Assembly (NCBI GenBank): GCA_025558095.1
Contig: JAIVFI010000003.1
Span: 310,001-374,000, forward strand
Origin: Hyaloraphidium curvatum
Taxonomy: Eukaryota > Monoblepharomycota > Hyaloraphidiomycetes > Hyaloraphidiales > Hyaloraphidiaceae
Direction of reading: 5' to 3'
Length of the DNA stretch: 64,000 nt
The first letter of the stretch is position 1, and each line of letters starts with the position of its first letter. The notes beneath the pieces are model-generated. The model saw only the letters and a program-made list of their open reading frames with translations, was not told the origin of the DNA and did no database searches. Below are positions 1 through 14,701 of this stretch, piece after piece. Made by a program: the position numbers and the translations under genes.

Positions 1-910
1 GAAGTTGGTGCCCGAAAAGTATCATGATTTCCTGAGGTCTTCGAAGCGCAGGACGTGGAGTAGCTTCCCCCTCACCGGCTGGGAGTGGATTTGGAAATCA
101 ATTTGCTGCCAGGAACAACACCTCCAACTGGAGAATCATTCCCCTGAACGCCAAAGAACTCTCAGATTTGCGAGAATACGTGGACAGCAGAAGAGGGTTC
201 ATCAGACCGAGTTCTGCTTGCGCTCCCTTTTTCTACGTGAAAAACAACGGCAGGGATCCCAGCCTTATGATCAATTATCAAGGCCTCAATGTGATCACGG
301 TTCCAGACAACTACAGCCTGCCATTGCTGACGGAGCTATGGACACATTGGACAGAGTTGCCGGAGCAAAGATCTTTACCAAAGTTGATCTAGCAGCAGCC
401 TACCAAGTCAGAGTTGCAGGAGGCCATGATTGAAAAACTGCATTCAAAACTCGCTACGGAAGCAACGCGTGCATGGTGATGCCACTTGGGCTCAGGGACG
501 CACCCAGTGCTTTTCAGCGCTACATGAACACGATTTTATCGAGCTCCTGGACGACTGGTTGGTGATCTACTTGGATGACTTGCTGGTGTACAACAAAGAC
601 CCAAGTAACCACGCAGAGCACGTGAAGAGTGCTGCAGGTGTTGAAGGACAACAACTTGCAGGCCAAGCCACATAAATGCGTCGGGGACGCAACGGAAGTC
701 ATCTACGCAGGTTTCCTGATCACGGAGAAAGGGTACCAGCCACACCCGAAAATGACAAGGCCATCCTGGATTGGGCGGAACCCAGGAATGTAAAGGAACT
801 GTCTGAGGACGTTTCTTGGCTTTGCCAGCTACCTGCAAAGACATACACGTGGAAGGGTTTGCAAGGAAAGCAACGCCCCTCTACAAGTTGTTGAAGAAAG
901 AGCAAGCATG
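1..910 (+). pseudogene. Ty3/gypsy retrotransposon reverse-transcriptase fragment, decayed
   Basis: Reading shifts between the three plus frames, but the stretch keeps the order of a Ty3/gypsy reverse transcriptase. A segment near 200-300 reads SACAPFFYVKN, near 370-400 FTKVDLAAAYQ, and near 570-595 YLDDLLVY, which is the catalytic YxDD box. A tether or RNase H-like start (GFASYLQRHT) follows near 810-850. Several frameshifts and stops separate these blocks, so it cannot make a protein. The left part is cut by the window edge and no LTR is visible. It is a relic next to two other retroelements. Confidence 0.85.
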
Positions 911-940
911 AACAGAATAGAATGTGGAAATGGGTATGGT

Positions 941-987
941 ATTGGTGACCCGGACCTGCCCCTGGCTTGGCCGCTATTACACCACCA
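941..987. repeat. Inverted repeat arm, LINE 3' tail
   Basis: About 47 bases here are the near-perfect reverse complement of 9134-9180 (two mismatches by eye). Both lie just beyond the 3' end of a LINE open reading frame, so I read them as the ends of two LINE 3' untranslated regions in opposite orientation. Between this arm and the LINE stop codon at 1494 lie roughly 500 bases that are absent from the other copy. Confidence 0.75.
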
Positions 988-1243
988 TTGGTTTGTTTAG
1001 CTATGTCGACCTATCTGCCTCCTCCTTCCCTTGAATCCACAGTATGCTCCAGTCCCGCCGGTGTTGTTTGCTGGCAGGAAAACCTTCCCACGAAGGTGAA
1101 AAACCTTCCAGAAAGAATGAGGAGTTTGGTTCGGTTTGGGTTTTGGGACCTTCGTTCCCATCCAGCGGGCACAATGTCAGGCATGCAGCTTCATCTAGGT
1201 CCTGAAAAGTTCAGTGTTGGTTCTGGTCAAAAGGTGCTGGATT

Positions 1244-1359
1244 TGCCGTGTAGGCGAACAAAGAGCCGTAGGACTCCTGCCTCCATCCCCGTGTGTTTTG
1301 GAGTCGCCGTGCAGGCGAGCAAAGAGCTGTAGGGCTCCTGCCTCCATCCCTGTGTTGGC
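1244..1359. repeat. Two-copy 61-bp tandem repeat
   Basis: The unit beginning GCCGTGTAGGCGAACAAAGA at 1244 recurs at 1305 with a few substitutions. It lies inside the extra 500 bases separating the LINE stop codon from its 3' tail. No gene is visible in 990-1480. Confidence 0.75.
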
Positions 1360-1493
1360 CGCTTACGTGTCCAGAGACCGGAATCCCCGGATATGTCGTT
1401 GTTTGCGCCGCGGCCCCTCCTTGAAGAGGCGCACCGGCGGGCAGTCAGCAGCGTTTAGCTAATTGCAAAGTTCATCGCCGTCGTGCATCTCTT

Positions 1494-2453
1494 TCATTTT
1501 CCCCGTTTTCTGTCGTTCATGGACTTTGAGATGAAGCTGGCAATGGAGTTGAGGGCCTTCTCCTTTTGCCGCCTCACTTTGATCGTGGGCTCGAACTCCT
1601 TGATGCTAAGAGCCCAGAGCCAGGTCAACATGTTCCACTCGCGGCCCAGTGTATCCAGTCTGGTCTGCAGCTTCTGGCGCCGCTCTGCATTTGCTGAACA
1701 GTGAAACAGAAAGTGTTGTTCGTCTCCAATGTGCTCAGGGTCATGCTTGCACGTTCTCTGCTGCACCTCAAGTCCTTGGTGCCTGCCTGTCTCCACCTCC
1801 AGGTCGTGGGTAGAGCACAGCAACTTTTGGACATCCCTCCGGTGCTTCTCCACCCGGATCAGGGATGGTCCGATGTGGCCAAAGGTCATGTCACACATCC
1901 TCCAAAAGTGCAGTTTGTCGTTGTCCTTGAGCCTCTGGGCATTGATCTCCCTGAACTTGCCCTTCACAAGATTCTCCACAGTCTCCTTGGGCCATGAGAA
2001 AGTGTCCTTCTCCCACATCTCCCTCCCATCTTCGCCGCCATAGTATACAAGTAGTTCCCTCAGGAAGGCAGCCCAGTTCCAGGACCCCTTCAGTGCCTCG
2101 ATCTTGAGTCCTTGTAGAGCAGGTACAATGCAGGGTCAGCTGTTTTGATGCGCATGAGGAACTTGAGAGCCGACTCATGGTCATGAACTGCAAGAGGGTA
2201 CTGGCCGCATACAGACACGCCAGGGAGGTAGATTTGGGCTGATGAGTGAAAGCACGAAGGGCCATGCATGTCACTTTGTCCCTGGTGCTTTCCCCGGCAA
2301 GGTACTCCTACTTCGGCATCTCCACAATGAACGGGATCCCATATTGGCCCACCGCCTTGACCTTCGTGTTGTAGAGCTTGAGCTGGAGGTCAGGACTCAT
2401 CCCAGGCTGCTCCCTGATGTCGCGGACCGGAGCCAGAGCCTATCTGCGGCGTT
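1494..2453 (-). mobile_element. LINE (non-LTR) ORF2 C-terminal half, interrupted by a copia insertion
   Basis: On the minus strand the frame ending at 1494 encodes a LINE C-terminus. It includes a Cys-His cluster (CKHDPEHIGDEQHFLFHC, about 1690-1740) typical of the zinc-binding region after the RT domain. Upstream frames to 2453 carry the RT-to-zinc linker with at least one frameshift, so the copy is probably dead. The RT domain of the same copy resumes at 8039 on the other side of the copia element. Target-site duplications flank the copia element exactly at the break. Confidence 0.8.
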
Positions 2454-2458
2454 CATCT
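2454..2458. repeat. Target-site duplication of the copia element, left copy
   Basis: CATCT immediately precedes the LTR at 2459. The same five bases follow the other LTR at 8034-8038. Five base pairs is the usual duplication length for Ty1/copia integrases. Confidence 0.93.
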
Positions 2459-2682
2459 TGTTGGAGTGGCTATGGGGCGTGGGGAAGACGTAGCCCCAGT
2501 GGTCTGAACCGGGTCAGAACTCAGATGGACGGGATGGGGAGAGGGACAGTTTCACGTTGACCCGTTGTCCATTCCCTTGCGATGACAAGTCCCTAGATGA
2601 CCCCTCCGGTCGTACCCAAGTATCCCCACACGCCAATAGACTCCCTATTGATACAGAATCGTAGCAACGATCCATTCCAACA
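2459..2682 (-). repeat. 3' LTR of the copia element
   Basis: 224-bp repeat bounded by TGTTGGA and TCCAACA, a perfect 7-bp terminal inverted repeat. I see no difference from the copy at 7810-8033. It lies downstream of the pol stop codon on the minus strand. Confidence 0.95.
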
Positions 2683-2691
2683 CTCCCCCTC
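2683..2691 (-). other. Polypurine tract (plus-strand primer site) of the copia element
   Basis: On the minus strand GAGGGGGAG directly abuts the 3' LTR. This is the position of the polypurine tract that primes second-strand synthesis in LTR elements. Confidence 0.75.
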
Positions 2692-2730
2692 GTTGCAAGA
2701 TTCCCAAGAAGTGTCCAGAAATCCCCAAAG

Positions 2731-5700
2731 TTAGTCACGAATCTCTACAATTCCCATAAGTGCCCTGAAACGTTGAAACTTCTCCCTTGGTAGCTGTTTG
2801 GTGAGCAGATCCGCAAGCTGGTCCTCTGTGTTGATGTACTCCAGCTGTATCTCTCCACTATCAATTTTCTCCCTCACAAAATGGTACTGCACTCCAATGT
2901 GCTTGGTACGTTCATGAAAGACAGGATTCTGCGCCAGCTTGATAGCCCCCTCATTGTCCTCCTTGATGACTGTTGGCCCTTGCTGAGGAAATCCCAATTC
3001 CTCCAATAAACTCCTTAGCCACGCAACTTGACGTCCAGCATAAGATAGAGCCATGTACTCGGCCTCTGTTGTTGAAAGAGCCACCACTGGTTGCAGTTGC
3101 GACTTGTAGATGATAAGACCGTTCCCCATCATCACTACAACCCCAGTTGTTGACTTCCCAGTGTCAAGATCCCCAGCAAAACTGGCGTCTGCATATCCAT
3201 GCAATGCTTTGGTCATGTCCAGATTCGGATCCCTCTTGTAAACCAAGCCAAAATCAGCTGTTCCCTTCAAGTATCTGGTTGTCTTCTTGACTTGCTCCAC
3301 TGCTTCACGAGTAGGTGCCATCCCATGACGGCTCTCCGTGATAATAGGTAAGGCAATGTCTGGCCTGGTGAAGTTCATAGCATACATCCAACTTCCCACC
3401 ATTGATCTGAACGGAAAACGTCCGATTTCCTGCTCCTCAGCAGCAGACAACTCCGTCTTCCGTTTCCTGAGCTTCACCCCAACGTCCATAGGTACAGAAA
3501 CTGCATTGCAAGTGTCCATTCCGAAGTCCTCCAAGGCTTTCTTGATGTAGTTGGACTGCTTGATTGTGATTGTTCCAGCCTTCTCGTCCTGCTTGATTTC
3601 CAAAGCCAGGAACTTTTTCATGCGACCCATATAACGTATCTTAATCCGCTTTCCCAGCTCCTCAAGAAATGCAATCGTCCGTTTTTCGTCCGTTGAGCTA
3701 CATCCAAAGTCGTCCACATGAATAATCATCAAAAGAAACCAATCATCTTGCCGCAGAAAGTAGATGCAGTACTCCTTTGAGCAACGTATAAGCCCCATCT
3801 CCGTGAGTATCTCGTGCAGGTGTCTGTGCCAAGCACGTGCAGCTTGCACAAGTCCATAAACCGCGACTCCAGGTCGAATTACAGTAGGTCTTCCATCAGT
3901 AAACTCAGGTAAATCCATCCCTTGAGCTGGATACAAGTAAACTTCCTCGTTCTCCTGGAGCTTAGCCTGTAGGAATGCCGCGTTTGCATCTGCCTGATGT
4001 ACAATCATGTTGTTCTGAGCAGAAAGCCAAAAGAAAAGCCGTACAGCAGCAGCAGAAGGTACAGGTGCAAAGGATTGACCAAAAGAAGATGGATCCTGCC
4101 AATCACCCCTTGCCACCCATCGAGCCTTGTAGTTTTCCTCCCCCACAATGCTGCCATCAGCTCCAGGTTTGAGGTCAAATACAAATTGGCTTCCAACCGC
4201 GAATTTTTCCTTGCCCTCAGGCAAGCCCATGATGTTGTACGCATCTCTGCTCTTGAAGTTGCCAATCTCACGTTCCATTGCCTTGGCCCACATCTCACGA
4301 TCCTCTGAACGCATTGCCTCTGCATAGTTCCGTGGTACACGTGCTCCAGTGCTTGCAGCAAAGATTCCATCCATGTGTGCCATGTCCTCCCAAGTTGGTA
4401 GGTGTCCCTGCCAGTCCAGGTGGTCCTGGACCTCCTCCATCAGGAAATTGATCGATTCCAGCGTGATCACGTTGATCTCCTTCTCGTTGCTCGTGTTGGG
4501 GGCTTTCCACCACTCCCCAGGAGGTCTTGGAGCTCTGCTGGATGACCTTGTAGGTAAAGGTATCTTAGAGCCCGTTCCAGCCGCCCCAGCGCCTCCCTGA
4601 GCTCCGCTGCTTGATGAAGATGCTCCTCCAGGCTCCCCACGTTGGTCTGTGGCTTCCCTAGCCGCACGATCACCAGAAAGTTGCGATCCACCAACTGCCT
4701 TTCCTCCCCCTGGATTGCCACTTCCACTGTTCCCAGAGCCTCTTCCACGAGCCACCAGCTCGTCCTCACTTTCGCTCTGAGCTCGTTGATCGCGTGACAG
4801 ACGTAAATCCGCGCCTCGGCTGCCGGAACTTGAAGATTGATGTTGAGTACCTCCAACTTCCAGTCTTTGACCTCCTCCCCCGGCCTCCTGGCGCTCAGGT
4901 TGACGCTGCACACGGTCTCCCTGTGTCCCACGATGCTCCTGGTTGCCGTCGTCGATTGGATCTGCGGAACGGACCCGCCGTGGCGTCTCCGGTGACGCCT
5001 CCAATTCCTCAGGCTGCGCCGACTCCTCCACTGCAAGTCGACGGTTCAATACAGCGCTCGGGTCCGCGTCCTCAGGTAGTTTTTCGACCGAAACTCTGCT
5101 TTCCAGAACCTGCATGTAGCTCTTGAGCGTCTTGTTTGACCAGCGTTCCTCGAAAACGACATCACGTGAGTCAAAAATCCGCCCGGTCTCAAGATTCTGG
5201 ACCGTAAATGCCTTCGATCGCGAGCTCATTCCCAGGTAGCGGCATTGTACCGCCTTAGCATCCCATTTGCCGCGCTTATCCTTGTCGACGATCGCGTAAC
5301 ACGTTTCTCCGAAACGTCGGATGTGGCTAATGTTCGCCCGTCTCCCAGTCAGCAGTTGAAACGGCGTAGACCCTTTCTGCCACGTCTTTGTGTTCGGCAA
5401 ACGATTCCGTGTGTTGATGTGATGATGCAGTGCGTATCCCCATAACGACTTCGGCGCTTTCGAGTCGATCAGGATGGTCCGGGTCCCTTCCTCAGCCGTC
5501 CGGTTCCGCCGCTCAATGACTCCGTTCTGCGCAGGCCGATTCGTTACCGACGATTCCAACTTGATTCCCTCGTTCTTGCAGTACGCTTCGAGCCGTTTTG
5601 ACGAGAATTCACCTCCGGGATCGACCCGCATGCATCCGACCTTTAGGCTGAACTGGTTCTTCACCCACTCGGCAAAGTGCATCATCCAGTCCTCCGCCTC

Positions 5701-7635
5701 CGATTTGTGCTTCAATAGGAACGCAAACTCCGCAGAAGTGTACTCGTCGACTGCATGCAATGCCCAGCGTTCTCCATGCACCGTTGCAACGTCCGATTGT
5801 ATCAGGTCCCAGTGAGTCAGCTCAAACGGCCGCGAGACTTTCCGCTCCGACTCCGGATAGGGCAACTGATGCATCTTCCCCATCACGCACTCCTTACAGA
5901 AGTTGTTGTGGTTTCCAGCAAACACGTACTCCTCCAATCCATCCACAATCCCAGCCTGTTGAACCTTCCTGAGTGCCGCGATCGGGTAGTGCCCGCAGCG
6001 CCCATGCGCAATCTCCGCGCTCAAATCCCCTTCCTGAGCACTCAGCATGATCTGTTCGTCATGCTCGTTGAGGATTTCCGCGTTGAGATAGTAAACGTGA
6101 CGATCTATGCGGCAAGTGCCCCGCACGTCGCCGCCCTTGGTGATGGCCCCTCCATCCGGACCCAGAAGCGTGTAGTATCCCATCTGCCCTAGTCTCCCAA
6201 TCGAAATGAGCGTTGCAGGAAGATCTTTGATGAAAAGCACATCTTCCAGGGTGACGATGTCGCCAGAATTGGTGAGCTTGATCTTGAGCTTTCCGACTTC
6301 GATCGCACGCGCGATCCCTTTTCCCATTCGAACATCAACTGCATCGCACGGCTTGATGCCGTAGAGCAGTTCCCTGATTCCCGTCGCGTGCACGGACGCG
6401 CCGCTATCCCCCATCAGCCTGCCGCGCATCTCCTGGCCCGTCTTCGCCGCGTGCACGACGTGTTCCGGGGGTTTTTCGTATCCACCGTCCCCCGTCGTCT
6501 CCCCATCGTTTCCCTCGATTCCGCCCTCCATCATGAACAGGAACGCGCCGAATCGATCTTCCAGATCGGGGAGATCGCCCAGGGTGAGCGTGTTCTGCTG
6601 CTCTCGTGCCGTTTTCCCATCGTCCTTCCTCCAGCACACGGCCTCGAGATGACCGTCCTTTCCGCACTTGTTGCAGGTTTTGTCACGATGGGTGCAGTCC
6701 TTCTTGACGTGTCCACCCTTCCCGCAGCAGAGGCACGTGATTCCCGAGCCGTTTTCGCCCTCCGCCGTGGCCTGCCGACCCCCGCGATTTCCGAACCCTC
6801 GCCCGCGACCCCTTGAACCCCCGCGGTCACCTCCATGGCCACCCCGTGATCCTCCGCGACCCCTGCCACGGTTTAGAGCGTACATCAACGTGTTTGGAGC
6901 GGGATTCACGGTTATGTTGGCTGCCCCAGGTGAGTACGTATCACCATTTTGCTCAGCTCGCTTGATCATAGTCTCCTCTTCCATCTCCATCCTCTTCTGA
7001 AGGTATGCAACGTTCAAGATAGGGTGTTTCTTCACTCCATTTTCAGTCTTCCACTCGTGTTTGGTCTGTGCTCCCAGCCAAATGCCGTCAATCTCGGCCC
7101 GAACTTGATCGAACTCAGGTAGGTCCTTCAGGACTTTCCTCCAGATGCTCATATCATCGTCATCTCCCTTCAGCTTTCCCAGTGCTTCAACTTCCATCTT
7201 TTTCTGCATGAAGCGGGTAAAATTCGGAGCCACCCGGTCGGTTTTGATGAACTCAAAGCTGTAGTACTGGACCTCGGCGTTCCCTTGCTGCGCCACATTT
7301 TCCGTCACGAAACGCTTCTCTAGGTAGTCCCAGATGTCCTTAGCAGTGTCCATCCTGCTGCAGATCCTTTTGAGACCAATAGAGAGTGATCCTACCAGGA
7401 TCCCTTGAGCTTTCTGGTCCTTCGTGTTCCAGGCTGACAAATCATCTTCCGTCTTTCCTCCCTGCCCTACCACGGGCTTTGCCACCTTTCCAGTCACAAT
7501 TTGCCAGTCACTCTCCCTCTGGAGCTTGGCCTTGATGTCAATTAACCAATCCTGGTAATTGGTTTGTGATCCGGTTTCCTCGAGCTTGGCCCCCCCAAAC
7601 AATGCCACACGGGTTCCTCCGACCGAAATCTCCAT
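2731..7635 (-). CDS. Ty1/copia gag-pol polyprotein (1634 aa)
   Basis: A single intact frame encodes the full copia order. A Gag region (about residues 20-230) is followed by an RGG-rich stretch and two CCHC zinc knuckles (C301-C314 and C321-C334, both CX2CX4HX4C). The aspartic protease has its DSGA site near 410. The pre-integrase HHCC zinc region lies near 530-600. The integrase core (about 610-780) includes VDPGGEFSS and a downstream ERRNRT segment. The reverse transcriptase (about 1160-1400) has HVDDFG where most copia elements have YVDD. RNase H (about 1490-1630) contains ADASFAGD and LSTTEAEYMAL. Gag and pol share one frame without a recoding site, as in many copia elements. No stop or frameshift is present. 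The ATG at 7635 sits 174 bp inside the 5' LTR. Confidence 0.97.
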   Translation of the reverse strand: MEISVGGTRVALFGGAKLEETGSQTNYQDWLIDIKAKLQRESDWQIVTGKVAKPVVGQGGKTEDDLSAWNTKDQKAQGILVGSLSIGLKRICSRMDTAKDIWDYLEKRFVTENVAQQGNAEVQYYSFEFIKTDRVAPNFTRFMQKKMEVEALGKLKGDDDDMSIWRKVLKDLPEFDQVRAEIDGIWLGAQTKHEWKTENGVKKHPILNVAYLQKRMEMEEETMIKRAEQNGDTYSPGAANITVNPAPNTLMYALNRGRGRGGSRGGHGGDRGGSRGRGRGFGNRGGRQATAEGENGSGITCLCCGKGGHVKKDCTHRDKTCNKCGKDGHLEAVCWRKDDGKTAREQQNTLTLGDLPDLEDRFGAFLFMMEGGIEGNDGETTGDGGYEKPPEHVVHAAKTGQEMRGRLMGDSGASVHATGIRELLYGIKPCDAVDVRMGKGIARAIEVGKLKIKLTNSGDIVTLEDVLFIKDLPATLISIGRLGQMGYYTLLGPDGGAITKGGDVRGTCRIDRHVYYLNAEILNEHDEQIMLSAQEGDLSAEIAHGRCGHYPIAALRKVQQAGIVDGLEEYVFAGNHNNFCKECVMGKMHQLPYPESERKVSRPFELTHWDLIQSDVATVHGERWALHAVDEYTSAEFAFLLKHKSEAEDWMMHFAEWVKNQFSLKVGCMRVDPGGEFSSKRLEAYCKNEGIKLESSVTNRPAQNGVIERRNRTAEEGTRTILIDSKAPKSLWGYALHHHINTRNRLPNTKTWQKGSTPFQLLTGRRANISHIRRFGETCYAIVDKDKRGKWDAKAVQCRYLGMSSRSKAFTVQNLETGRIFDSRDVVFEERWSNKTLKSYMQVLESRVSVEKLPEDADPSAVLNRRLAVEESAQPEELEASPETPRRVRSADPIDDGNQEHRGTQGDRVQRQPERQEAGGGGQRLEVGGTQHQSSSSGSRGADLRLSRDQRAQSESEDELVARGRGSGNSGSGNPGGGKAVGGSQLSGDRAAREATDQRGEPGGASSSSSGAQGGAGAAGTGSKIPLPTRSSSRAPRPPGEWWKAPNTSNEKEINVITLESINFLMEEVQDHLDWQGHLPTWEDMAHMDGIFAASTGARVPRNYAEAMRSEDREMWAKAMEREIGNFKSRDAYNIMGLPEGKEKFAVGSQFVFDLKPGADGSIVGEENYKARWVARGDWQDPSSFGQSFAPVPSAAAVRLFFWLSAQNNMIVHQADANAAFLQAKLQENEEVYLYPAQGMDLPEFTDGRPTVIRPGVAVYGLVQAARAWHRHLHEILTEMGLIRCSKEYCIYFLRQDDWFLLMIIHVDDFGCSSTDEKRTIAFLEELGKRIKIRYMGRMKKFLALEIKQDEKAGTITIKQSNYIKKALEDFGMDTCNAVSVPMDVGVKLRKRKTELSAAEEQEIGRFPFRSMVGSWMYAMNFTRPDIALPIITESRHGMAPTREAVEQVKKTTRYLKGTADFGLVYKRDPNLDMTKALHGYADASFAGDLDTGKSTTGVVVMMGNGLIIYKSQLQPVVALSTTEAEYMALSYAGRQVAWLRSLLEELGFPQQGPTVIKEDNEGAIKLAQNPVFHERTKHIGVQYHFVREKIDSGEIQLEYINTEDQLADLLTKQLPREKFQRFRALMGIVEIRD

Positions 7636-7790
7636 CCCGGCCGCCGCAGCACCTCTAGTGCTTCACGCGCTCTTTCTAGCGCCCACTGAGTCCACCCAGG
7701 CGGTCCTGGAGACCAGACTCAGCTGGATGCGGTCCCCTCGGCTGGTTGCGCCACACGCAACTTCAAAGCCGCGCAAAAGTGTTCTGGACA

Positions 7791-7809
7791 CCCTTTGGGC
7801 TCATAGACC
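7791..7809 (-). other. Primer-binding site, initiator-Met tRNA anticodon-region type
   Basis: The first bases inside the 5' LTR read GGTCTATGAGCCCAAAGGG on the minus strand. The stretch TATGAGCCC is complementary to GGGCTCATA, the anticodon stem-loop of eukaryotic initiator methionine tRNA. From memory it resembles the Drosophila copia site, which uses a half-tRNA primer. The match is by eye and the tRNA of this organism is not in the window. Confidence 0.6.
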
Positions 7810-8033
7810 TGTTGGAGTGGCTATGGGGCGTGGGGAAGACGTAGCCCCAGTGGTCTGAACCGGGTCAGAACTCAGATGGACGGGATGGGGAGAGGGACAG
7901 TTTCACGTTGACCCGTTGTCCATTCCCTTGCGATGACAAGTCCCTAGATGACCCCTCCGGTCGTACCCAAGTATCCCCACACGCCAATAGACTCCCTATT
8001 GATACAGAATCGTAGCAACGATCCATTCCAACA
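7810..8033 (-). repeat. 5' LTR of the copia element
   Basis: 224-bp repeat identical by eye to 2459-2682, with the same TGTTGGA/TCCAACA ends. On the minus strand it precedes the primer-binding site, so it should carry the element's promoter. Confidence 0.95.
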
Positions 8034-8038
8034 CATCT
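8034..8038. repeat. Target-site duplication of the copia element, right copy
   Basis: CATCT directly follows the LTR ending at 8033 and matches 2454-2458. Joining the two sides restores a continuous LINE sequence read on the minus strand. Confidence 0.93.
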
Positions 8039-8865
8039 TGGCCTCCCTCCCAGTTGACGTGAGCTGGTACCCCAGGAGCTTCACACGGTGAGGTATCCTC
8101 CTGGCCATCCACTCTGTTTAGCTGACGTTGATCTCCAGCCCATATGCAGACAGAAGATCCAGCTGCATCTAAGCATCCTTCACCGTCTTCGAGGTCAAAG
8201 TGGTGTCGTCTGCAAAGAACAAAGCCAGCAAGCTGACCATCCTCTCCTGATCCTCCTTCTCCTCAAACACCATGCCCAGATCCATCTCTTTTGCACCATT
8301 GGCCTCCATGAAAGCAGCAATATCATTGATGAACAAGATGAAAAACAGCGACAAGAGTTGGTCCCCTTGTTTCACTCCAGTCAGGAACTTGATGAAGTCC
8401 GACTTGGTGCCGTCCTCATCCAGGAGCCTTCCCCACACACGCCCAAACGCCATCTCGAACATGACAGCAACCTGTTTGGGTACACCCATCTCCTCCAGCT
8501 TCTTCCACAACCTCGGGCGCTCCACCGTGTCAAAAGCCTTTGTGAAGTCTACAAACACCATGATCAGCTTCTCCTTGCGTGCCTTGGCCAAGGAGAAGAA
8601 GAGCGCCTCAGCAAGGAAACTGTGTGAGGGGGTTGACACCCTCCGTGCACGGAATCCAAACTGCAAGCTCTTCCGCTCCCACTTCTCCATGATGAGGGAT
8701 CTCAGCTCAAGAAGCAAGGCGTGACAGCTTGGGGTCAATCTCGGTCCTTTCCACCATATCTGCAAAGCCGTTCAGGATCTGAATCAGCCTCCTCATGGAT
8801 GCTGACCTTGTCGTACGTACTTCCTCTTTGCCTCCTTGTTCACCGCCACCATGATCTAAAAAGCT
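8039..8865 (-). mobile_element. LINE reverse-transcriptase domain (same copy as 1494-2453)
   Basis: The minus strand encodes a non-LTR RT. It has FVDFTKAFDTVERPRLWKKL (about 8500-8560), a TGVKQGDQL segment near 8370-8390, and the catalytic FADDTTL box near 8190-8210. Upstream codons near 8700-8840 read ILNGFADMVERTEIDPKLSR in a shifted frame. At least one frameshift near 8700 and loss of continuity make this a pseudogene. It abuts the inverted second LINE tail at about 8.9 kb. Confidence 0.85.
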
Positions 8866-8910
8866 GATTGCACTTGGCTGAGCCAGCCTCCATCTGCTCG
8901 TACTCCGGAG

Positions 8911-9180
8911 CCAGAAGCTGCAGACCAGACTGGAAGCACTGGGCCGCGAGTGGAACATGGAGACCTGGCTCTGGGCTCTTAGCATCAGGGAGTTCGAGCC
9001 CACGATCAAAGTGAGGCAGCAAAAGGAGAAGGCCCTCAACTCCATTGCCAGCTTCATTTCAAAGTCCATGAAGGACAGAAAACAGGGAAAATGAAAAAGA
9101 TGCACGATGACAAACTTCAAATTAGCAGCAAACTGATGGTGTAACAGCGGCCAAGCCAGGGGCAGGTCCGGGTCACCAAT
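8911..9180 (+). mobile_element. Second LINE 3' end, inverted relative to the first
   Basis: Read on the plus strand, this repeats the last 58 or so codons of the LINE ORF (for example LNSIASFISKSMKDRKQGK, then stop) and its 3' tail. It differs from 1494-1690 by scattered substitutions. Homology starts at about 8911 and ends at about 9180 without an obvious poly(A) run. It is therefore a strongly 5'-truncated copy facing the first LINE. Confidence 0.82.
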
Positions 9181-9181
9181 A

Positions 9182-9570
9182 CTATTCACGTTGGTATGCA
9201 TGGACTCCTTCACCCACACCCCATCCCAGAGATTTGGCATGATTGCGAGGAGCTGGAAGTGGCAGGGCAGGTGTTTGCCACGCAACTTGCTCTCCTTTCC
9301 AGCCGGGCAGGTTAGGTTGGCCTCGATGGTCATGCTCGGAACCATGTGGCTTTGTGGCAAATGCATAGTCCAGGGTGATGTCACGGTTGCCGTCCTTCCC
9401 TGCACGGGTTATCGCTCCGGGCTCTAGCCCTCCCCCCCTGGCCCCAGTACATGAGCTTTTGCATGATGTAGCACGAACCTGGCCATCAACATGGCCTTCT
9501 TCCACATGGTCTCGCTGAGGTTTGCAGGACCAAGCAACATTCAAGGTGGCAATGATAGGCAAAGATAGAG
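9182..9570 (-). mobile_element. Probable LINE 5' (endonuclease-side) remnant
   Basis: On the minus strand, broken frames read ATLNVAW near 9540-9560 and ITLDYAFATK further on. These weakly resemble the start of, and a later segment of, an APE-type LINE endonuclease. Several frameshifts are present. It lies between the membrane-protein gene and the inverted LINE tail, where the upstream part of the minus-strand LINE would be expected. The assignment rests on position and weak motif likeness. Confidence 0.35.
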
Positions 9571-11838: not shown

Positions 11839-14701
11839 TCAACTCCTCCGTGCCCTTTTCCGCGACTCATCTTCTACCACTTCTTCAACCGGCTCATCTG
11901 TCTCTGACAGGCCAGCACTTTCTGAGTCTTCCGGTGGTGCCAATGTGACACCCCCATGATCCGTCTGACAGGGACAATCAACACCGGCGCGGGAATGATG
12001 CCACTGCGCTACAGACAGCTTCACTTAGCTTCCGTTTCATCTTGAGCTTTGCCTGCTTCTCTCGCTTTTTTGCCTTTTGAAGCTGCTTGTCTTCGGCGTC
12101 TTGCTCATTCATGATGGATTGCAATCCAGTAAGATGGTTGGAGATCTCCTGCTGGACCCTGTCACCAATCGAAGCTCTGAAAGCGTCCTCTGATTCGAAA
12201 TGCTGCACTGGGATGGCCTGGCACCAGCGAAACCACTTCAGGGCACGGCAGCATTGACACGGCCACATGAAAAGCACCTCCCCATCTTCAGAGAAGACGA
12301 ACTTGGCTGCCGAGCCTCTTGCGGCGATTGCTTTCTGCTTGAGCTTCTGCATACGCCGCTTTGAGGTAGGGGCTGGGCCGCCATTCTGTCCTGTGGAACC
12401 CTTTGACGGTGGGGACGTCAGATTAATGGGCTGCATGACAAGCATATGGACTCACGTCCAGTGCATCGGTCAAATCGTGATCTCGGCGAGCCACCACGAG
12501 GATGTCATCCGTTTCGTCATCTTCGTCCTGTCGCTCGGTGAGCTTCCCAAAATGATCCGACAGCACCGTCTTGTTCTTCTGCCGGAACATCTTGTCCACT
12601 TTGGTGAGGGCTTGCTGTTGCTGAAGCCGGAACAGGCTGTCAGATACAATGCATACGACCTTCATGGGGCAATACCTTGGGCAGAGGAGGCTCCTCATCT
12701 GAGTCGGGTTCAGACTCGGCGAGCATTGGCTTGGACCCTGGCGTTGCCTCATCATCTCGCCGCAAGGCGTGTGGCGTGTTCTTGTCCGCTTTGGCAGATT
12801 TCTGATCCCTGCGTTAGTAATGCTACAGATGCGCCGTGCCGAGCATACCTTGGCAAACTTGATCTTTGGTGTACCCAGAAGCCCAAGCGAAGCGGCGAAC
12901 CGATCTGCGGGTAAGCTGTGCACGTTGAAGACGGCCTTGTTCCGCTGCAGGTAGACGGACCGCATGTAGGAAACGAAGGCCTTTGCCGCCCGATCAGACA
13001 CTGGCCGCCGCCTGACGAGGGATAAAGCTACCTTCTGCGCGAGGTATTTCAAGGCCGGATCTTGAGCACAGAACCCCGCAAGATTGCTCTTGATCGACTG
13101 CGTCTTGCTGAGGTTGGCCTTTATCCGGCTGATTGGCACCTTCTTCTCGTCCAGGAGAGACACCATGGCCTCCGTTTCCGATGGCAAGAGGAACAAGAGT
13201 GCGTTGCCCGTGCGTTCGTTCCTCGCGGTCCTCCCCACGCGATGAATGTACGTGTCAGTGTCGTCCGGGCAGTCGACCTGCAGGACCCAGTCGACCGCGG
13301 GGAAATCCAGACCCCTGGTGACAGATGTCAAGCGCCTCAGCAGACTGCGACGCTTCGCGACAAGAAGCCAACCTGGCGGCGATGTCCGTGGCGAATAGAA
13401 CGGCCACCTTCTTCCTGCAGAACTGATCGAAGATGGCCATTCGTTTCGGCTGCTTCTGCTTCCCGTGCAGGCACATGAGCTGGATCCCCGGCTGCAGCTT
13501 GCAGAAGACCTCGTGCACGTATCGGACCTTGGCCGCAAACAGATCAGGCCCTGGACACAATCCCGCTCCGGCGGACCAACCTGTTTGCAGCTCGACAGAA
13601 AGACGAGTATCTTGGACTTCAGATGCGTCCGAATGAACGAATACAGAAGGTCAAGCTTCTGATCCAACTCGCACGTCATGTACCGCTGAATGAGCGTGCT
13701 CGGCGTGCTGGTGTCCTCCTTTTCGTGCACCGCCACGTACTCCGGATTCTGGTGCGGAGGCTCGTTGGAGGGTCCAACGCCGTCACACGTGCCCGTGCTC
13801 ACCGCAAGGGAAAGCCGCGCGAGGTCCCGCACGCTCTTCGTCTGCGTTGCGGAAAAAAGAAGAGTCTGCCTCGTCCTCGGAAGGTTGTCGACGATGGCAT
13901 TGACGGTCTTCTCGAACCCCAAGTCCAAGATCCGATCCGCCTCGTCCAAAACCAGCACCCGAAGGTTGTCGCAGTTGAAATCAGGGGTCTGATCCATGTG
14001 CTGGAGGAGCCGGCCAGGAGTGCACACAAGGATATTCATGCGGTTGACCCGTTCCTGCTCGGCCTGCAGGTTCTTCCCTCCGATCAGCAACCCCGCGGAG
14101 AAGGTGTGATGCCGCCCGACGGCCCTGAGAACCTCAAAGATTTGGAGCGCCTGGCAACAAAACGGCCAGCGTCAACTTCTTGCCAGGGAAAAAATCGCCC
14201 GACCTCATCTCACCAGCTCTCGCGTGGGGGAAATGACGAGCGCTCCCACTCCATCCAAAGACGTCCACTTCGCCCTATAGAGGGCTTCCAAGACGGGAAC
14301 AAGGAAAGCAAGAGTCTTTCCGGATCCTGTTTTTGCCGCTCCGAGTACGTCTCTGCCCCTTAAGGCGAGAGGGAGCGACTCGCGCTGAATGTCCGTCATC
14401 TCCACGAAGTGGGCATCGGCAAGACCTGGGCCGTCGTGCAGGGCGACCAACCCCCGCGCAGTAAGAACAAGCTCTCCTAATGACCAGATAATCAACGCCC
14501 ACCCCTCTGAGTCGGTGTCGTCAGTGGGAGATCCTCGAACATCGTGGTCGACGATGGATCCAGCGATTCTAGCCGCTCCTCGATCTGTGCCAGCTCCTTG
14601 GACTCATCGAGCCTCCTCCTCTGTCTTCCATTGACAGTCTTATGCCGCGGACCCTCCTTTGGTCGCTGACGCGGCCGCTTCGGGCCCTCTGGAGCGTCCA
14701 T
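11839..14701 (-). CDS. DBP4: DEAD-box ATP-dependent RNA helicase, DBP4/DDX10 family
   Basis: Nucleolar helicase of the family needed for early 18S rRNA processing and U14 snoRNA release. From the ATG at 14701 the spliced product has a basic N-terminus, then [10 protein letters not shown] (Q motif), AAKTGSGKT (Walker A), [43 protein letters not shown] (split by an intron near 13320-13375) and HRVGRTAR. The C-terminal extension is diagnostic of Dbp4: a basic [12 protein letters not shown] stretch, KFVFSEDGE, then after an intron a helical [14 protein letters not shown] segment and an acidic tail. At least seven short introns are inferred from frame changes with GT-AG ends. The last is about 52 nt and joins KRKLSEA to TDHGGVT. 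It diverges from PHB2 across 210 bp. Confidence 0.9.

What the first reader, a model, noticed from the sequence alone, without database searches (positions are those of the whole stretch)
2459..8033. Full-length copia element with identical LTRs, nested in a LINE
The 224-bp LTRs read as identical, the 1634-codon gag-pol frame is uninterrupted and CATCT duplications flank the element. Together these indicate a recent insertion by a probably autonomous element. It provides an upper-bound time marker for the underlying LINE and a candidate active element in this genome.
Basis: seen in the sequence. Interest (0 to 1): 0.6.

Follow-up and report, generated by a model that had tools for sequence, protein, structure and literature searches.

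The report
Young copia in centromere-like retroelement islands
A freshly inserted, complete copia-type jumping gene sits inside an older LINE, and its family is found almost only in one small cluster of mobile DNA per chromosome-sized contig, clusters that are probably this microbe's centromeres.

Summary
LTRs 2459-2682 and 7810-8033 are identical (224/224), the minus-strand gag-pol frame 2731-7635 is open (1634 aa, copia domain order), and perfect CATCT duplications flank the element. A LINE twin just outside the window, identical for 1.83 kb around the site, carries one CATCT and no copia, so the element is nested in a LINE. A second insertion (contig C32) is identical over 5,351 bp, so the family moved very recently.

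The more important fact is where the family lives. All 28 insertions found in the 31.9-Mb genome lie within about 11 kb of copies of the same LINE. That LINE forms one compact island on 39 of the 41 contigs that carry it (two contigs have two). Of 36 copia RT matches 32 are in islands; of 41 Ty3/gypsy integrase matches only 8 are. Among 16 insertions with intact target duplications, 9 have no LINE match at either edge, so the shared feature is the region, not the LINE sequence.

Best reading: the islands mark centromeres, as do Zepp LINE clusters in Coccomyxa, copia/LINE centromeres in Chlorella and CoLT in Phytophthora. A gag-only partner with near-identical LTRs shares the niche. CENH3 binding is untested. 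New member of a known kind.

The parts
7810..8033 (-). 5' LTR, 224 bp
   Evidence: identical to 2459-2682
2459..2682 (-). 3' LTR, 224 bp
   Evidence: identical to 7810-8033
2454..2458 (.). target-site duplication CATCT
8034..8038 (.). target-site duplication CATCT
   Evidence: single copy in the empty twin
7797..7809 (-). probable primer-binding site GGTCTATGAGCCC, next to the 5' LTR; sister copies C15 and C35b read GGTTATGAGCCC, the complement of the usual eukaryotic initiator-Met anticodon arm (half-tRNA priming as in Drosophila copia, from general knowledge)
   Evidence: host tRNA not seen
2683..2691 (-). polypurine tract GAGGGGGAG next to the 3' LTR
2731..7635 (-). gag-pol open frame, 1634 aa: Gag 35-174, CCHC knuckles 301-334, protease motif DSG 410, integrase core 602-701, SH3 763-831, RT 1132-1383 (HVDD 1306)
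8039..8900 (-). LINE, reverse-transcriptase part upstream of the insertion point
   Evidence: RVT_1 in window:8169-8765:-
1481..2453 (-). same LINE, 3' coding part downstream of the insertion point
921..1480 (-). LINE 3' region with two 57-bp direct repeats (1238-1294, 1299-1355); holds the 30-base motif used to map islands (window 946-975)
8906..9192 (+). fragment of another LINE copy in opposite orientation, head to head with the first; island edge near 9.2 kb

Best explanation
This is a young, complete Ty1/copia retrotransposon. Its family (autonomous copies, deletion derivatives, and a gag-only partner with near-identical LTRs) is confined to one retroelement island per chromosome-scale contig. 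A LINE family builds these islands by nested insertion and tandem amplification, and they most likely mark the centromeres. Mechanism: LTR-driven RNA, probably primed by an initiator-Met tRNA fragment, is copied inside Gag particles and inserted by the integrase with a 5-bp staggered cut. Shown: anatomy, 5-bp duplications, very recent movement, confinement to islands, and insertion there into both LINE and non-LINE DNA. Inferred: that integration is guided by a feature of island chromatin rather than by LINE sequence, that the partner borrows the autonomous element's enzymes, and that the islands are kinetochore sites.
For: 28 insertions on 21 contigs; the 7 contigs with two have them at most 17.8 kb apart (P about 1e-8 if uniform); all lie within 11 kb of a LINE motif. 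The LINE motif occurs 123 times against 0 for the reversed control; listed places form a single cluster on 39 of 41 contigs. RVT_2 matches: 32 of 36 within 20 kb of LINE motifs, zones that make up 6% of the genome; Ty3/gypsy integrases 8 of 41. Contigs are near chromosome scale: 8 of 10 tested end in (TTAGG)n. The window's island part is 53.6% GC against 64.6% beyond it. LINE fragments form head-to-tail arrays on C37, C12 and C6. 16 insertions have perfect 5-bp duplications of differing sequence. Copies on C3 and C32 are identical over 5,351 bp. The same architecture is CENH3/CENP-A supported in Chlorella sorokiniana (PMC11005252) and Phytophthora sojae (PMC7082073).
Against: No CENH3 or Hi-C data. 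C1 and C35 carry two islands each. C16, C38 and C44-C55 showed no listed island (lists are truncated). A minority of Ty3/gypsy copies also lie in islands, so they partly act as general repeat sinks. Targeting cannot be told from selection against insertions elsewhere.
Confidence: 0.72

Rival explanations
1. The islands are silent 'safe havens' (heterochromatin, gene-free pockets) other than centromeres. Insertion is general and copies persist only there because insertions among dense genes are lost.
For: The genome is compact and the islands are gene-poor. The confinement pattern alone does not separate targeting from selection.
Against: Ty3/gypsy elements with long open frames survive on the arms in dozens, so arms are not closed to LTR elements. 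Even the youngest, identical copia copies are all in islands. One island per contig is hard to explain for generic silent pockets.
Confidence: 0.2
2. The copia integrase (or local homology) recognises LINE sequence itself, and its islands simply follow the LINE.
For: This copy and several others lie inside the LINE.
Against: Of 16 insertions with perfect target duplications only 6 have LINE at both edges and 9 at neither; target 5-mers are diverse. The LINE library used lacked the LINE 5' part, so some LINE edges may be missed.
Confidence: 0.06
3. An ordinary dispersed copia element that happened to land in a LINE (the implicit first reading).
For: The element's own structure is ordinary.
Against: The genome-wide distribution is strongly non-random.
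Confidence: 0.02

Closest known systems
CoLT, the centromeric Copia-like transposon of Phytophthora sojae (PMC7082073)
   Same: Ty1/copia element with near-identical LTRs, clustered about once per contig; intact copies concentrated in the clusters; some related scaffolds show two clusters.
   Different: CENP-A binding was shown there and is untested here. Here islands are much smaller (about 10-25 kb), LINE-based, and a gag-only partner is present. No sequence comparison was made.
Zepp LINE clusters of Coccomyxa subellipsoidea (PMC3446292) and Zepp-like LINEs of Chlamydomonas (PMC8226300)
   Same: One cluster of nested, mostly 5'-truncated LINE copies per chromosome, clusters of 1.5-42 kb in Coccomyxa.
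   Different: Membership of this LINE in the Zepp/L1 clade was not tested; its RT weakly matches an R2 protein among solved structures. Copia families share the islands here, and islands are lower in GC than their surroundings.
Mixed copia/LINE centromeres of Chlorella species (PMC11005252)
   Same: Copia and LINE families together make up the putative centromeres.
   Different: CENH3 ChIP-seq supports C. sorokiniana; none here. Host relationship unknown.
TR-GAG and BARE-2 type non-autonomous LTR elements (PMC6022998)
   Same: Gag domain only between LTRs.
   Different: The partner here has a diverged Gag N-terminus (40% identity over 113 aa), two zinc knuckles and a long C-terminal part without a known domain, and lies in islands.

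Membership tests
Ty1/copia (Pseudoviridae) LTR retrotransposon | Integrase before reverse transcriptase in one polyprotein, copia-type gag and RT | tested here: met
   Retrotran_gag_2, rve (below its curated cut-off), SH3, RVT_2 4.5e-39 in that order; integrase similar to a solved LTR-retrotransposon integrase chain, 3.5e-9
Ty1/copia (Pseudoviridae) LTR retrotransposon | Direct LTRs with TG...CA ends, 5-bp duplication, PBS and PPT | tested here: met
   the tRNA match of the PBS is inferred
Active autonomous element | Intact frame and recent copies | tested here: met
   open frame, identical LTRs, second locus identical over 5,351 bp
Active autonomous element | Transcription and new insertions | not testable with these tools
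   no RNA or strain data
Centromeric retrotransposon cluster | One compact cluster per chromosome | tested here: met
   39 of 41 contigs with one cluster, 2 with two
Centromeric retrotransposon cluster | CENH3/CENP-A binding | not testable with these tools
   needs ChIP
Chromodomain-guided centromeric element (plant CRM, Ectocarpus ECR-1) | Chromodomain in the integrase tail | tested here: not met
   no Pfam match at E 1 in residues 832-1131, and only a weak RNase-H-like match at the C-terminus
Zepp-like L1 LINE (the underlying LINE) | RT/EN phylogeny within the Zepp clade | not tested
   only RVT_1 found; no endonuclease in the copies read
TR-GAG non-autonomous element (the partner) | LTRs, Gag domain only, no pol | tested here: met
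   L037:1378-3393: Retrotran_gag_2 1.3e-6 and zinc knuckles only; LTRs 97-99.6% identical to this element's

The most novel reading that the evidence does not exclude
A still-mobile copia family and a gag-only partner with its own constrained Gag actively target the centromeres of an unidentified small-genome eukaryote, through an integrase tail without a chromodomain, and together with a LINE build them into tandem arrays.
Probability: 0.35. Interest if true: 0.6.

Novelty: new member of a known kind. Interest (0 to 1): 0.45.

Why it matters
If the islands are centromeres, they can be mapped from sequence alone in a lineage where they may be undescribed. Young copies with known insertion sites would let one test whether a copia integrase finds centromeric chromatin without a chromodomain. 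Ty3/gypsy elements on the arms of the same genome are a built-in control.

Tried and rejected
'Copia recognises LINE sequence' was rejected as the sole cause, since most edges are not LINE. A switch from 100% to lower LINE identity exactly at the copia edge (a sign of recombination between copia copies) was considered and rejected: identity to the twin continues 298 bp past the junction. Chromodomain in the integrase tail: none found. Literature search for half-tRNA priming gave nothing specific. No tRNA gene in the window.

Full report
OBSERVATION. The window is C3:310001-374000 of a 31.9-Mb, 55-contig genome. The element is as described: 224-bp LTRs identical base for base, CATCT on both sides, and a 1634-aa open frame on the minus strand with copia domain order, a DSG protease motif, two CCHC knuckles and HVDD in the RT. 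A probable primer site lies next to the 5' LTR and a polypurine tract next to the 3' LTR. Zero differences in 224 bp bounds LTR divergence only loosely (95% upper limit 1.3%).

AGE. The better clock is the comparison between loci. The copy on C32 (target duplication GCTCT) is identical to this one in all 5,127 internal bases and in the LTR, a 95% upper bound of about 0.06% divergence. Other full-length copies are 99.0-99.5% identical internally (C35, C22, C15). LTR pairs within an element are identical in nearly all complete copies. Stop-to-stop frames of 1643 aa or more are open at C3, C22, C15, C32 and C35 and in both units at C36. No mutation rate is known, so no date in years is given.

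NESTING. Both flanks belong to one LINE. An inverted LINE copy at C3:306484-308634, just outside the window, aligns through the junction with a single CATCT. It is identical for 298 bp on one side of the insertion point and about 1,529 bp on the other. This paralogous empty site proves the nesting. The LINE copies read here are 5'-truncated with broken frames and no recognised endonuclease. In C40 a LINE fragment interrupts a copia copy (L049), so nesting goes both ways. A nested insertion gives a minimum, not a maximum, age for the LINE beneath it.

FAMILY. Besides autonomous copies there are solo or truncated LTRs, a 2.0-kb deletion derivative (C20), and a head-to-tail pair on C36 with three LTRs, one outer target duplication (TGATC) and a shared duplication of about 336 bp that keeps the frame open. 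A second element type of about 3.0 kb has LTRs 97-99.6% identical to this one but a different 2.55-2.6 kb interior. It encodes 672-690 aa in four of five copies and 537 aa in C10. The protein has a partial copia Gag domain and two zinc knuckles but no pol, 40% identity to the autonomous Gag over 113 aa, and dN/dS of 0.28-0.54 between copies. That suggests moderate constraint, but few substitutions separate the copies. Matches to it lie at 12 places, all on island-bearing contigs.

LOCATION. LTR, RT and gag searches give 28 insertions on 21 contigs. Where a contig has two, they are at most 17.8 kb apart. A 30-base motif from the LINE 3' part occurs 123 times, against 0 for the reversed pattern. 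The 100 listed places, with LINE evidence for C30 and C21, cover 41 contigs; only C1 and C35 have markers more than 25 kb apart. Every copia insertion lies within about 11 kb of a marker, while zones within 20 kb of a marker are about 6% of the genome. In that script the C30 marker was entered approximately, so the smallest distance listed (60 bp) should be read as roughly 235 bp. As controls, copia RT matches (RVT_2) are 32 of 36 inside, the exceptions being two copies of another family on C11 and C41, while Ty3/gypsy integrases are 8 of 41 inside. A second copia group with a stronger RVT_2 score also sits in islands. C37, C12 and C6 carry head-to-tail units of 2011/1431, 2029 and 2672 bp that contain LINE sequence.

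INTERPRETATION. One compact, mostly internal, retroelement-rich island per chromosome-scale contig is the pattern reported for Zepp clusters in Coccomyxa (PMC3446292), Zepp-like LINEs in Chlamydomonas (PMC8226300), copia/LINE centromeres in Chlorella (PMC11005252), CoLT in Phytophthora (PMC7082073) and ECR elements in Ectocarpus (PMC11541908). Near-chromosome scale is supported by (TTAGG)n arrays at the high-coordinate end of 8 of 10 contigs tested; none showed an array at the low end. Among 16 insertions with perfect target duplications only 6 have LINE at both edges, 1 at one edge and 9 at neither, so the common feature is position, not LINE sequence. I therefore favour region- or chromatin-guided integration into probable centromeres. 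Shown: the distribution and the youth. Inferred: centromere identity and the targeting step. No chromodomain was found in the integrase tail, so the tether, if any, would be of another kind.

LIMITS. Search output lists only the best candidates, so counts are lower bounds, and contigs without a listed island may have one. The host is unidentified, so I cannot say whether its centromeres have already been described.

Noticed in passing
window 1-900: Degenerate Ty3/gypsy-like reverse transcriptase fragment on the + strand (read by eye: LNVITVPDNYSLP), part of the same island.
   Followed up: no
L060, L062, L064, L066, L068, L072, L074, L076 (contig ends): Telomere-like (TTAGG)n, the five-base arthropod-type repeat, at the high-coordinate end of 8 of 10 contigs and at none of the low ends, in a GC-rich 32-Mb genome.
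   Followed up: partly
G000:C1 (391-402 kb and 885-894 kb), G000:C35 (74-97 kb and 150-160 kb): Two contigs carry two LINE islands each: a misjoin, a chromosome fusion or an inactive second island.
   Followed up: no
L041/L042 (C36:172952-184549): Tandem copia, LTR-interior-LTR-interior-LTR, with one outer target duplication and the same roughly 336-bp duplication in both units that keeps the frame open.
   Followed up: partly
window 12801-12860, minus strand: Short probable intron with a yeast-like branch site right before the acceptor (GTATGC...TACTAACGCAG) in an SPB4-like DEAD-box helicase gene.
   Followed up: no
L080, L081, L082, L083: Head-to-tail arrays of LINE-containing units (2011/1431, 2672 and 2029 bp) in islands of C37, C6 and C12, looking like satellites forming from retroelements.
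   Followed up: partly
G000:C11:755662-756519 and G000:C41:397159-398016: A third copia group lies outside the islands, the only copia RT matches that do.
   Followed up: no
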